From positions 1 through 5,079 of the forward strand of contig JAISWV010000402.1 in the NCBI GenBank assembly GCA_031270755.1: a stretch of DNA of 5,079 nucleotides, read 5' to 3'. Position 1 is the first letter of the stretch. Each line of letters starts with the position of its first letter. Both the position numbers and the translations under genes were made by a program. The stretch is from Synergistaceae bacterium. Lineage in GTDB: Bacteria; Synergistota; Synergistia; Synergistales; Aminobacteriaceae. The notes under the pieces are model-generated. The model was given only the letters and a program-made list of their open reading frames with translations. It was not told the origin of the DNA and did not search any database. Shown here in pieces: positions 2,389 through 5,079 of this stretch.

Positions 2389-3210
2389 CTATAGCAATGG
2401 ATTATGATTCTCGTTTACCCGGTGGCCGGACAGGGAACCCGGGGTTTCGACCAGGTGTTTCCAATATTTCTTGGGCATGTGGCCGCGCTGTGTTTTATAG
2501 TTCAGGCGCTGACCCGTCGTCGTGCTTCGGTAGAACTCGCGCCAGAGCTCTTGAATTTCCCGTTCTTCTTTGGTGTCCGACGGAGCTCGGGGGAGGTCCA
2601 TGTCCGTGACGATCCATTTTTTCGTGTCGTACACCGCCGCTTTTTTACGGCGCAGGTCGTGAAGCACCCAGCCCCGGTCGGGCAGACGAGCGCCGAAATG
2701 GTCGGCCAAAAGAGCCAACACGTCGCAGTCCGGCTCCAGCTCCGCGTAAAAGATTCCTCCCACGTCTTTGAACCGCACGACACCCAGGTACTTGTTGTAC
2801 TCTCCCCCCGTGCGAAGAGCCGCTTTGCGCACGACGTGGGCGTACTCGTCGGACAGGTCCGCCTCCGCCCTTTTCCCCAGGGTCCACACGCGCTCCAGGG
2901 TGTGCCAGAGAGCCATGTCCACGCTGCTTGAGAAATGCCGGTCATCGCCCCTGTCGCATGAGAGCAGCGCGAACCACGCATCGGACAGCAATTGACGCGA
3001 AACCCGTTTTTTCAAGACCGCCGCCGTCGCCTCAGCCACCTTCGCGTCGTTTTCGATTATCGTCGTCTTGAACAAGATTTCTTGTCGAGCCTGTCGGGTG
3101 TCTCCTTCGCCGTAACGGCGCACAATGCCCTCGGGGACGCTTTGGTCCCGCGCCGTCCTGTGGACGAGGCACATCAAACCGTCCCAAGTGCCGTCGTAAA
3201 CGTATATCAT
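2389..3210 (-). CDS. DUF4130 / TIGR03915-type putative DNA metabolism protein, partner of the adjacent radical SAM protein
   Basis: The 273-residue protein starts with MIYVYDGTWDGLMCLVHR, matching the usual start of this family (MIY-YDG-F-GLL). The C-terminal DUF4130 domain covers roughly residues 85-255 and ends with the characteristic QRGHMPKKYWKHLVE (241-255). Other family blocks are GGEYNKYLGVVRFKDVGGIFYAE (135-157) and DHFGARLPDRGWVLHDLRRKKAAVYD (170-195). In some genomes this domain is fused to a uracil-DNA-glycosylase-like domain; here there is no fusion, only a short tail after residue 255. The gene starts five bases after the radical SAM stop codon with no clear Shine-Dalgarno sequence, which suggests translational coupling. 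Known from the family: constant genomic neighbour of the radical SAM protein. Inferred: cytosolic, acts with it on DNA or nucleotides. The biochemical activity is not known to me. No transcription terminator is evident downstream. Confidence 0.93.
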   Translation of the reverse strand: MIYVYDGTWDGLMCLVHRTARDQSVPEGIVRRYGEGDTRQARQEILFKTTIIENDAKVAEATAAVLKKRVSRQLLSDAWFALLSCDRGDDRHFSSSVDMALWHTLERVWTLGKRAEADLSDEYAHVVRKAALRTGGEYNKYLGVVRFKDVGGIFYAELEPDCDVLALLADHFGARLPDRGWVLHDLRRKKAAVYDTKKWIVTDMDLPRAPSDTKEEREIQELWREFYRSTTTGQRLNYKTQRGHMPKKYWKHLVETPGSLSGHRVNENHNPLL

Positions 3211-3215
3211 CGAGG

Positions 3216-4454
3216 TCAGACCGGGTCGAAGGGCAGCAAGAGCTGCTGGGATACGGGCTTGCCCGACAAGAAGCGGCGCAGGCGCTCCAAGGAGGAAATC
3301 ATTCCCTCCGCGCGCCCGTCGCAGGTTATGAAATGGGCGGCGCGCTTCATCACGACGCCCAGGCGCTTCAGGTCCTCATGCCTCAGGCGGCGGGAGCGGC
3401 GCGCCACGACGATGCGCTTCGCGGACCTGACCCCAACGCCGGGAATACGCAGAAGTTTTTCGTAGTCCGCCTTGTTCACGTCCAGAGGAAAAAAGTTCAT
3501 GTTGCGCAGCGCCCACGCCGTCTTTGGATCCAGGACATCGTCCAGGGAGGGTGCGCTGTCGTCGACGATCTCCCCCGTCGTGAAGCCGTAGTAACGCAGA
3601 AGCCAATCCGCCTGGTAAAGCCGATGTTCCCGAAGAAGAGGCGGGGCCGTCGCCAAAGCCGGGAGGTTTCGTTCCTCGTTCACCGGCATATAGGCGGAGT
3701 AGTACACCCGCTTCAGGCCGAACTTGCCGTAAAGGCCCTCGGACAGGCGCAGGATGCTGAGGTCCGTGTCGGGGGTCGCGCCGATGATCAGCTGGGTCGT
3801 CTGTCCCGCCGGAACGAACCGAGGCGCGCGCAGGGCCGGGCGTTTCTCTTCCGCTTGCTCTTCCAGTCGGCCTCTGATGAAATTCATGGGCGTGAAGATG
3901 GATTTTTTCGTCTTCTGGGGGGCCAGCAGGCCAAGGCTCCGTTCCGTGGGAAGCTCGATATTGACGCTCATCCGATCGACCAGACGCCCCAGTTGCTCGA
4001 TCAACTCCGAAGACGCCCCGGGTATGGTTTTGGCGTGAATGTACCCGTTGAAACGGTGCTCTTTGCGCAAAATAAAAACGGCCCGAATCAAGTCTATCAT
4101 CGTGTCGTCGGGGCTGCGGCGAATCCCGGAACTCAAAAACAGCCCTTCGATGTAGTTTCGGCGGTAGAAGTCGATGGTGAGGTCGGCTACCTCCCGGGGG
4201 GTGAAAGTTGCCCGCGGTCTGTGGTTGCTGCGTCGATTGACGCAATAGGCACAGTCGTAGACGCAGTCGTTGGAGAGAAGTATCTTCAAGAGCGACACGC
4301 AGCGCCCGTCGTCCGTCCAGGTGTGGCATATACCCGCAAAGTAGGCGTTTCCGATTTCCCCCGGCCGGTTTGCCCGCTTCGACCCGCTTGAAGAACAGGA
4401 GACGTCGTACTTCGCCGCGTCCGCCAAGATCGACAATTTGCCCATTACGTCCAT
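3216..4454 (-). CDS. Radical SAM protein, putative DNA modification/repair (TIGR03916 type), with C-terminal helix-hairpin-helix
   Basis: This 412-residue protein has the radical SAM cluster motif CVYDCAYC at residues 64-71 (Cys64, Cys68, Cys71), which would hold a [4Fe-4S] cluster and cleave S-adenosylmethionine. Before it comes the family signature ADAAKYDVSCSSSGSKR (11-27) with Cys20, then GICHTWTDDGRC (41-52) with Cys43 and Cys52. Conserved blocks after it include FYRRNYIEGLFLSSG (96-110) and YYSAYMPV (251-258). A helix-hairpin-helix motif, LLRIPGVGVRSAKRIV (334-349), suggests DNA binding. The ATG at 4454 is chosen because GGGAGGG lies eight bases before it and because family members begin just before KLSILADAAKYD. 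An in-frame TTG at 4502 would add 16 residues, but that region contains the promoter. The gene heads an operon with the DUF4130 gene. Family assignment is firm; the reaction and substrate are unknown, and a role in DNA repair or modification is inferred from the HhH motif and from glycosylase fusions of the partner family. Confidence 0.95.
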   Translation of the reverse strand: MDVMGKLSILADAAKYDVSCSSSGSKRANRPGEIGNAYFAGICHTWTDDGRCVSLLKILLSNDCVYDCAYCVNRRSNHRPRATFTPREVADLTIDFYRRNYIEGLFLSSGIRRSPDDTMIDLIRAVFILRKEHRFNGYIHAKTIPGASSELIEQLGRLVDRMSVNIELPTERSLGLLAPQKTKKSIFTPMNFIRGRLEEQAEEKRPALRAPRFVPAGQTTQLIIGATPDTDLSILRLSEGLYGKFGLKRVYYSAYMPVNEERNLPALATAPPLLREHRLYQADWLLRYYGFTTGEIVDDSAPSLDDVLDPKTAWALRNMNFFPLDVNKADYEKLLRIPGVGVRSAKRIVVARRSRRLRHEDLKRLGVVMKRAAHFITCDGRAEGMISSLERLRRFLSGKPVSQQLLLPFDPV

Positions 4455-4462
4455 GGATATGT

Positions 4463-4469
4463 CCCTCCC
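4463..4469 (-). promoter_or_regulatory. Ribosome binding site of the radical SAM gene
   Basis: GGGAGGG on the minus strand sits eight bases before the ATG at 4454. This decides the start against the upstream in-frame TTG at 4502. Confidence 0.85.
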
Positions 4470-4472
4470 ACA

Positions 4473-4489
4473 ACTACGCAATACGTAGT
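4473..4489. promoter_or_regulatory. Perfect inverted repeat at the predicted transcription start, candidate operator
   Basis: ACTACG and CGTAGT form perfect 6-bp arms around a 5-base centre (caata on the plus strand). The site starts about five bases downstream of the -10 box, so it covers the expected +1 (near 4487) and most of the roughly 33-base leader. A repressor bound here would block transcription. A weak leader hairpin is an alternative. I do not recognise the motif as a named operator. Confidence 0.45.
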
Positions 4490-4493
4490 CGCC

Positions 4494-4522
4494 ATTATAC
4501 AAGACTCAATTTTTGAAGTAAA
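4494..4522 (-). promoter_or_regulatory. Sigma-70-type promoter of the radical SAM/DUF4130 operon
   Basis: The minus strand has TTTACT (-35, 4517-4522, 4 of 6 consensus bases), a 17-base gap, and a perfect TATAAT (-10, 4494-4499). Transcription would start near 4487, leaving a leader of about 33 bases with a strong ribosome binding site. The box spacing and its fit to the gene start make this the best promoter in the window. Confidence 0.7.
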
Positions 4523-4729: not shown

Positions 4730-4762
4730 TTTCAACCTCCACTTTCAACCTCCACTTTCAAC
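4730..4762. repeat. Tandem repeat, 13-bp unit (TTTCAACCTCCAC), 2.5 copies
   Basis: Copies at 4730-4742 and 4743-4755 are identical, followed by a 7-base partial copy at 4756-4762. The partial copy contains the stop codon of the ATPase gene, so the duplication adjoins its 3' end without changing its reading frame. Read on the minus strand, each full unit contains GGAGG. Confidence 0.9.
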
Positions 4763-5079
4763 GCACAAAATCGATAAAATTGTGTTTGTCGATGATTTCG
4801 ACGGCTTGCGTTCCGTAGTTTTCCTGGAAAGTACGCGCCGAAGCCGTAAGTTTACCTCTGTTCCATTTGAATTCGTAGGGGTGGAGCCTGCCGTCGCATT
4901 CTTCCACCAAGTCGATCTCGCCCGCGCTTTTCAAGCGCCAGAAATACAGAGTTTTGTAATATCGATGGTTTTGATTGTATTTCAACCGCTCGCTGAGCAT
5001 CAAGTTTTCCCACATTCCGCCGACGTCGCGTCCGGTATCGGGGGCGGCGAAATTATCAGTCAAAGCAGAGATCATTCCG
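4758..5079 (-). CDS. C-terminal part of an AAA-type ATPase with DUF4143 domain, 5' partial
   Basis: The frame stays open to the right edge of the window, so the Met at 5075 is probably internal and the N-terminal ATPase domain lies outside. Numbering from that Met, the visible 105 residues carry typical DUF4143 C-terminal features: DVGGMWENLMLSERLKYN (17-34), YFWRLKSAGEIDLVEE (44-59) and HPYEFKWN (65-72). Glu53/Asp55 and Glu68-x-Lys70 are arranged like a PD-(D/E)XK nuclease-type core, an architecture proposed for this domain; activity is not shown by this. Family proteins are about 380-400 residues, with Walker A/B motifs in the missing part, and their cellular role is poorly defined. The stop TGA (4758-4760) lies within a 13-bp tandem repeat. 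I see no terminator directly after it. Confidence 0.88.
   Translation of the reverse strand, partial: GMISALTDNFAAPDTGRDVGGMWENLMLSERLKYNQNHRYYKTLYFWRLKSAGEIDLVEECDGRLHPYEFKWNRGKLTASARTFQENYGTQAVEIIDKHNFIDFVR

What the first reader, a model, noticed from the sequence alone, without database searches (positions are those of the whole stretch)
2389..4454. Radical SAM/DUF4130 operon: a conserved but biochemically undefined putative DNA repair or modification system
Seen: a radical SAM protein with CVYDCAYC and a C-terminal helix-hairpin-helix, followed after five bases by a DUF4130 protein, under one good promoter. Known: these families (TIGR03916 and TIGR03915) recur side by side, and the partner family is sometimes fused to a uracil-DNA-glycosylase-like domain. 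Inferred: the pair works on a DNA or nucleotide lesion, with radical chemistry from one subunit and recognition or processing by the other. Here the minimal two-gene form occurs with no glycosylase in the window, which suggests that the glycosylase is optional or encoded elsewhere.
Basis: partly seen in the sequence, partly recalled or inferred. Interest (0 to 1): 0.72.

Follow-up and report, generated by a model that had tools for sequence, protein, structure and literature searches.

The report
SOS-linked radical-SAM DNA repair pair
This two-gene bacterial operon, whose relatives in other phyla mostly carry the recognition boxes of the DNA-damage (SOS) response in their promoters, encodes a radical-SAM enzyme with a likely DNA-binding motif and a partner predicted to fold like the DNA-handling proteins RecJ and Cdc45, and would likely use radical chemistry to repair damaged DNA without the uracil-removing domain that some relatives carry fused to the partner.

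Summary
The pair is real: TIGR03916 radical SAM (3216-4454, 627.5 bits) and TIGR03915/DUF4130 (2389-3210, 189.5 bits), 5 bases apart. In 185 Synergistota genomes 29 have both, 9 the radical SAM alone; 28 of the 29 are adjacent. UdgX reaches its cut-off in none. New here: (1) DUF4130's model resembles DHH phosphoesterases (RecJ, Cdc45) in two libraries, but catalytic motifs and sequence-profile support are missing. (2) SOS boxes: GAAC-N4-GTTC within 1 mismatch before 55 of 79 Bacillota radical SAMs, exact GAAC-N7-GAAC before 13 of 14 Pseudomonadota ones; SOS control of a UDG-COG4277 operon and one clostridial pair was already in print. (3) The window has neither box, but a palindrome shared with relatives and with promoters of an HTH-S24 (LexA/CI-like) repressor (5 of 6; own genome only at 2 mismatches); recA promoters lack it. 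(4) An N-terminal Cys-Cys-His-Cys signature mostly accompanies DUF4130; one prediction from it failed. Likely an SOS-inducible repair complex; the lesion is unknown, abasic sites my guess.

The parts
3216..4454 (-). Radical SAM protein, TIGR03916 (rSAM_link_UDG), 412 aa
   Evidence: TIGR03916 627.5 bits, cut-off 343.5; PF04055 32.2 bits; AF2 model pLDDT 82.9 resembling lipoyl synthase, HydE, BioB, MiaB
4242..4265 (-). CVYDCAYC, residues 64-71, radical-SAM [4Fe-4S] motif
   Evidence: Sequence; the three Cys are 100% conserved in 113 paired rows and kept in all 10 relatives without DUF4130 at hand
4299..4397 (-). N-terminal C20 / C43-H44 / C52 signature, candidate extra metal site (auxiliary [4Fe-4S] or zinc; inferred)
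   Evidence: Invariant in A3 (46 rows); the three Cys 99.1, 99.1 and 100% in 113 paired rows (the one gap row is truncated), H44 is Q in one; altered in 10 of 10 relatives without DUF4130 (9 Synergistota; L132); two Bacillota loci keep it without an adjacent DUF4130
3393..3485 (-). Helix-hairpin-helix motif, residues 324-354
   Evidence: HHH_3 E 5.9e-5 but below the curated cut-off; family profile to 2duy E 0.00039
2389..3210 (-). DUF4130 / TIGR03915 protein, 273 aa; predicted DHH-phosphoesterase-like (RecJ/Cdc45-like) fold without the catalytic motifs
   Evidence: TIGR03915 189.5 bits, PF13566 136.6 bits; model pLDDT 88.7; fold matches; no sequence-profile support
4494..4522 (-). Sigma-70-like promoter TTTACT-17-TATAAT
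   Evidence: 10 of 12 consensus positions
4473..4489 (.). Perfect palindrome ACTACG-N5-CGTAGT between -10 and start codon; predicted repressor operator
   Evidence: CTACG-N5-CGTAG within 1 mismatch in 6 of 22 Synergistota pair promoters, this one included (all 6 tested of genera g1, g5, g15), dinucleotide shuffles 0.04; 2 exact places in the whole genome, one is this
4462..4469 (-). Shine-Dalgarno-like GGGAGGGA
   Evidence: Read directly from the sequence

Best explanation
The operon likely encodes a damage-inducible DNA-repair complex in which a helix-hairpin-helix radical-SAM enzyme would do radical chemistry on a DNA lesion, while DUF4130, predicted to have a RecJ/Cdc45-like fold without the catalytic motifs, would hold the (probably single-stranded) DNA. 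Shown: the pairing, the order radical SAM then DUF4130, SOS boxes in the promoters of most relatives tested in Bacillota and Pseudomonadota, a palindrome in the window's promoter that recurs at promoters of an HTH-S24 (LexA/CI-like) repressor in related genera, and the absence of UdgX. Predicted: the DHH-like fold and loss of catalysis; an extra metal site at C20/C43-H44/C52. Inferred: that the repressor controls this promoter and is cleaved on damage; that the substrate is DNA. My guess at the lesion, the weakest step: an abasic or otherwise base-damaged deoxynucleotide in single-stranded DNA, because relatives fuse DUF4130 to UdgX, whose family makes and covalently caps such sites. Without UdgX, as here, the pair would act on sites made by ordinary glycosylases or arising spontaneously.
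Against: No biochemistry. Profile-profile comparison of DUF4130 with RecJ and NrnA gives nothing (probability 0.05 to 0.15 per cent), and fold-match rmsds are 4 to 6 A. None of 22 Synergistota recA promoters carries the operator within one mismatch in 350 bases, and the window genome's own repressor promoter has it only at 2 mismatches, so an SOS regulon here is not established. Of 26 Synergistota promoters (the window's genome counted twice) none has the Bacillota box within 1 mismatch and one has the N7 box (shuffles 0.3); 0 of 4 Bacteroidota promoters has either exact box. 9 Synergistota genomes keep a diverged radical SAM without DUF4130. Two Bacillota loci on long contigs (L150, L160) have the intact Cys signature and no adjacent DUF4130, and no box; whether DUF4130 is elsewhere in those genomes did not complete. 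The abasic-site guess rests on the UdgX fusions of another phylum.
Confidence: 0.6

Rival explanations
1. A DNA-modifying rather than repairing system: the radical SAM modifies a base (for instance thymine) and DUF4130 recognises or processes it, as suggested in PMC3765255.
For: [quoted passage not shown] the radical SAM's fold neighbours include methylthiotransferase MiaB and lipoyl synthase.
Against: SOS boxes in front of the pair in two phyla fit repair or damage tolerance better than housekeeping modification; the pair is patchy (29 of 185 genomes of the phylum).
Confidence: 0.15
2. The pair removes the UdgX-DNA covalent adduct (or helps UdgX) and has no function of its own on DNA without UdgX.
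For: Fusion of DUF4130 to UdgX in L058, L060, L061; the next gene is annotated as UdgX family in 6 of the 10 plasmid loci fetched, in all of those whose downstream gene is annotated.
Against: UdgX over cut-off in 0 of 185 Synergistota genomes and 3 of 23 others, while the pair is conserved.
Confidence: 0.08
3. A spore-photoproduct-lyase-like direct reversal of pyrimidine photoproducts.
For: PMC3765255 calls the associated radical SAM SplB-like; radical SAM plus damage-linked regulation.
Against: NCBIfam lists only TIGR03916 and a marginal thiH match for this protein at E 0.01; many hosts seem to be gut anaerobes kept from light (inference from record names); three further invariant Cys upstream of the cluster motif.
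Confidence: 0.1
4. The radical SAM acts on a nucleotide, RNA or a protein, and DUF4130 is a maturation or nucleotide-binding factor.
For: DHH-fold matches include PAP phosphatase and phosphodiesterases acting on small nucleotides.
Against: HhH motif and SOS boxes.
Confidence: 0.12

Closest known systems
TIGR03916 / TIGR03915 (rSAM_link_UDG and SAM_7_link_chp) uncharacterised pair
   Same: Both proteins score over the curated cut-offs; same order and close spacing
   Different: Database families without tested function that I found; here without UdgX and with its own promoter palindrome
SOS-regulated UDG operon COG1573-COG4277 of Bacteroidetes, Alphaproteobacteria and Verrucomicrobia (PMC8565304, passages seen)
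   Same: Radical SAM (COG4277 by recall) with a partner gene, damage-regulated
   Different: There a glycosylase is named as the partner; here the minimal form with DUF4130 alone
CAC3343-CAC3344 of Clostridium acetobutylicum (PMC3828012, passages seen)
   Different: Bacillota-type box by my scan of relatives (GAAC-N4-GTTC); the window has a different palindrome. That CAC3344 is DUF4130 was not tested
RecJ / Cdc45 / DHH phosphoesterases
   Different: No DHH and no GGGH motif (1 chance DHH in 108 rows), no sequence-profile similarity
Lipoyl synthase, MiaB, HydE, biotin synthase
   Different: Cys spacing differs, C-terminal HhH, no known substrate
Non-canonical LexA (HTH_3-S24) of Bacteroidetes with N5-spaced operators (PMC8565304, passages seen)
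   Same: Domain make-up of the Synergistaceae repressor and the 5-base spacer of its operator
   Different: Other half-site; regulation of recA not found; cleavage and binding untested

Membership tests
TIGR03916 | Score over curated cut-off 343.5 | tested here: met
   627.5 bits
TIGR03916 | CxxxCxxC and C-terminal HhH | tested here: met
   CVYDCAYC at residues 64-71; HhH below cut-off alone, E 0.0004 by profile
TIGR03915 / DUF4130 | Score over curated cut-offs 112.25 and 27 | tested here: met
   189.5 and 136.6 bits
UdgX-linked system (TIGR03914) | UdgX domain fused or in genome | tested here: not met
   0 of 185 phylum genomes over cut-off; own genome best 137 bits of 189.95, on another contig; the MAG is 86.7% complete
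DHH phosphoesterase superfamily | Fold | tested here: inconclusive
DHH phosphoesterase superfamily | DHH metal motif and GGGH motif | tested here: not met
   1 of 108 rows, a chance DHH in L059
SOS regulon with canonical LexA | Known LexA box in the window promoter | tested here: not met
   Neither GAAC-N4-GTTC nor GAAC-N7-GAAC within 1 mismatch in the 300 bases upstream; no LexA over cut-off in 18 genomes, own included
SOS-like regulon with HTH-S24 repressor | Operator shared by repressor gene and target | tested here: met
   In related genomes: 6 of 22 pair promoters, 5 of 6 repressor promoters at 1 mismatch or less; in the window's own genome the repressor copy has 2 mismatches
SOS-like regulon with HTH-S24 repressor | recA under the same operator | tested here: not met
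   0 of 22 recA genes within 1 mismatch in 350 bases upstream; promoters further upstream not scanned
SOS-like regulon with HTH-S24 repressor | RecA-triggered self-cleavage | not testable with these tools
   Ala-Gly and Ser positions present in the 5 repressor ORFs read, Lys by eye in the sequences; the LexA positions are recalled
Spore photoproduct lyase | Sequence family match | tested here: inconclusive
   Not among families at E 0.01 nor among listed fold matches; a fold list cannot exclude it
Auxiliary-cluster radical SAM enzymes | Second Fe-S cluster | not testable with these tools
   Three further invariant Cys; residues 18-41 of the model have pLDDT under 50

The most novel reading that the evidence does not exclude
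This is a new kind of SOS repair machine: a radical-SAM enzyme with a second, partner-linked metal site works with a catalytically stripped RecJ/Cdc45-fold clamp to rescue damaged or base-less nucleotides in single-stranded DNA; UdgX is a later Proteobacterial add-on; and in Synergistaceae the machine is switched on by a phage-type (HTH-S24) repressor that replaced LexA.
Probability: 0.25. Interest if true: 0.87.

Novelty: new variant of a known kind. Interest (0 to 1): 0.6.

Why it matters
A conserved, damage-linked radical-SAM operon of many anaerobes has had names but, as far as my searches show, no chemistry. A predicted fold for DUF4130, an SOS box in front of the UdgX-free form across a sample of Bacillota, and a candidate operator and repressor in Synergistaceae give concrete handles: which inducer, which partner surface, which DNA to test. 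If right, it adds radical chemistry by an enzyme pair to inducible DNA repair and explains why UdgX is fused to DUF4130.

Tried and rejected
Failed prediction: after I wrote that low-scoring Bacillota radical SAMs would lack DUF4130 and the Cys signature. Wrong for 13 of 14: they have a diverged DUF4130 downstream and intact cysteines (12 CCHC, 1 CCQC); only L132 lacks both. The broader link (signature kept when DUF4130 is adjacent, altered when it is absent) survived, but L150 and L160 keep the signature without adjacent DUF4130, as do four loci cut by contig ends (L172, L184-L186).

The claim that the three Cys alone track DUF4130 is weak: random triples of conserved columns are broken in all four DUF4130-less lineages in 19% of draws. 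The N-terminal region as a whole is enriched for losses (permutation p 0.001), and H44, R51, F96, N100, Y101 are lost in all four lineages.

Profile-profile search for DHH homology: nothing. Pfam on 47 DUF4130 members: DUF4130 in all 47, other families in at most 2. PDB by sequence: nothing convincing for DUF4130. Defence library: no match for the radical SAM and a marginal one for DUF4130. Rfam: none at gathering. Spore photoproduct lyase is not among the listed fold matches, which excludes nothing. recA as regulon member: not found (one search was a first script whose residue pattern found no recA). UdgX with radical SAM, UdgX with LexA, and Synergistetes with LexA and SOS response, in the paper library: 0 papers each. 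Acinetobacter 'phage' record with the pair looks like a bacterial contig (glyS, glyQ, aidB), so I do not count it as phage-borne; the other nine phage-collection records were not looked at.

Rows dropped before counts: P homologs, duplicate loci and rows under 360 aa were left out (113 paired rows remained), and the six Bacillota rows without adjacent DUF4130 were kept out of the paired set, near-duplicates, among them two DUF4130-less rows, and L132 were not in the tree, 68 of the 71 listed matches were examined (G189 was in hand as L043, two fragments were left), upstream stretches under 120 bases, 4 of 26 Synergistota promoters.

Full report
Observation. The two minus-strand genes are as described: radical SAM 3216-4454 and DUF4130 2389-3210, 5 bases apart. 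The radical SAM scores 627.5 bits against TIGR03916 and the partner 189.5 against TIGR03915. The promoter matches 10 of 12 consensus positions. The host is a MAG (86.7% complete) related to Synergistaceae assemblies. Neighbours in the window are a MetX-like esterase end, UxuA (mannonate dehydratase) and the end of a DUF4143 protein, none known to me as repair genes.

Co-occurrence. In 185 Synergistota genomes, TIGR03915 is over its cut-off in 29 and TIGR03916 in 36, plus split or partial copies in G036 and G101. All 29 are among these 38; nine have the radical SAM without DUF4130 (G004, G011, G013-G016, G170-G172), also by the broader PF13566; 147 have neither, counting G119, whose weak PF13566 match is broken by three stops. 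In 28 of the 29 the two lie side by side, radical SAM first; in G098 they sit on different contigs. In 28 loci found by DUF4130 similarity in Synergistota (4, already counted above), Bacillota, Bacteroidota, Spirochaetes and Pseudomonadota the radical SAM is upstream on the same strand in all 28 (the odd order printed for L060 comes from an over-long ORF; in L040 and L046 the radical SAM is split over two ORFs); L053 and L061 have gaps of 1066 and 454 bases. Of 71 radical SAM matches in 299 Bacillota genomes I examined 68 loci; 61 have a DUF4130 on the same strand, 59 of them within 73 bases and two 723 and 1170 bases away. Of the seven without, four are cut by contig ends, L132 is a diverged form, and L150 and L160 are unexplained.

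Glycosylase. UdgX (TIGR03914) is over its cut-off in 0 of 185 Synergistota genomes; the best own-genome match, 137 bits of 189.95, is a UDG-superfamily protein on another contig. Of 23 other genomes with the pair, 3 are over the cut-off: L058, L060 and L061 carry TIGR03915-TIGR03914 fusions, whereas Asticcacaulis L059 has DUF4130 alone. On plasmids the radical SAM occurs in 158 of 72,556 records. I fetched ten of these: in six the next gene is annotated 'UdgX family uracil-DNA binding protein', three have no gene table there, and in one the record ends after the gene.

Regulation. Box patterns were fixed (by recall) before scanning 300 bases upstream of the radical SAM. Bacillota: GAAC-N4-GTTC within one mismatch in 44 of 66 high-scoring loci (letter shuffles 6.0; control palindromes 1, 1 and 2; 41 of the 60 with adjacent DUF4130) and 11 of 13 low-scoring ones (1.8); exact in 11 and 6 (0.2 and 0.1); in 50 of these 55 the nearest box lies 20 to 110 bases before the start anchor. 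Pseudomonadota: exact GAAC-N7-GAAC in 13 of 14, some of them close relatives (dinucleotide shuffles 0.08). Bacteroidota: neither exact box in 4. This agrees with print: CAC3343-CAC3344 was placed in the LexA regulon of C. acetobutylicum by footprinting and expression analysis (PMC3828012, passages); a UDG operon COG1573-COG4277 is described as SOS-regulated in Bacteroidetes, Alphaproteobacteria and Verrucomicrobia (PMC8565304, passages; identity of COG4277 with this family is recalled). In Acinetobacter Tol 5 a gene of this name is up under extreme desiccation (PMC13130816, passage).

The window itself has neither box. It has ACTACG-N5-CGTAGT at 4473-4489, just after the -10. Relatives of genera g1, g5 and g15 have the same palindrome within one mismatch downstream of the -10 (6 of 6 tested, the window included, from which the pattern was taken; 6 of 22 over the phylum, shuffles 0.04); genera g2 and g9 and two of four g26 genomes have GATAAC-N5-GTTATC, a pattern read from these promoters, within one mismatch (8 loci). 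No canonical LexA passes the cut-off in 18 genomes, but the six of them in g1, g5 and g15 each have a match to the peptidase end of LexA from one conserved HTH-S24 protein (HTH_3 and Peptidase_S24 confirmed in the three scanned; Ala-Gly and Ser seen in the five read). With the pattern already fixed, its promoter carries the operator within one mismatch in 5 of 6 (shuffles 0.03, three control palindromes 0); in the window's own genome only a two-mismatch copy overlapping the -10. HTH-S24 repressors with N5-spaced operators are the SOS regulators of Bacteroidetes (PMC8565304, passages). Against a full SOS regulon: none of 22 recA genes has either operator within one mismatch in 350 bases upstream. 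The exact operator occurs at two places in the genome, the other inside a peptidase-like ORF.

Reading. A damage-inducible repair complex is the best account: HhH and a DHH-like subunit to bind DNA, a radical SAM centre to act on the lesion, UdgX as an add-on in Pseudomonadota. The lesion is unknown; abasic or base-damaged nucleotides in single-stranded DNA are my guess. PMC3765255 had already linked DUF4130 to SplB-like radical SAM proteins and UDG and proposed thymine modification (figure legend).

Novelty. The families and the SOS link of the UDG-bearing form and of one clostridial pair are known. New as far as my searches of an open-access library go: the DHH-like fold, the SOS box before the UdgX-free form across a Bacillota sample, the Synergistaceae operator and repressor, and the DUF4130-linked N-terminal signature.

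Noticed in passing
L189 1090-1800, L190, L191, L192, L193, L195: Synergistaceae tested lack a LexA over the cut-off but g1, g5 and g15 have an HTH_3-S24 repressor with CTACG-N5-CGTAG-like operators in its own promoter: candidate non-canonical LexA of this group.
   Followed up: partly
L008, L010, L011, L009, L013, L015, L028, L032 upstream of the radical SAM: GATAAC-N5-GTTATC palindrome at the -10 region in genera g2, g9 and part of g26; its regulator was not identified.
   Followed up: partly
L066-L070, L106-L109, L132: Diverged TIGR03916-like radical SAMs without DUF4130 (L132: none adjacent), altered N-terminal Cys signature, cluster motif kept: possibly a separate function.
   Followed up: partly
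L150 (G296), L160 (G257): Radical SAM with intact Cys signature on long Bacillota contigs, no DUF4130 next to it and no SOS box.
   Followed up: no
G119:C10:43882-44073: Weak DUF4130 match with three stop codons inside, a likely pseudogene remnant.
   Followed up: no
window 4758-5075: C-terminal end of a DUF4143 protein, best PADLOC match PDC-S01 (E 7e-28), cut by the end of the window.
   Followed up: no
L117 (CAKLQH020000003.1): Record named Acinetobacter phage MD-2021a carries the pair beside glyS, glyQ and aidB; looks like a bacterial contig.
   Followed up: no
L197 and L201: HTH-S24 proteins near UmuC-like polymerase ORFs in G032 and G093.
   Followed up: no
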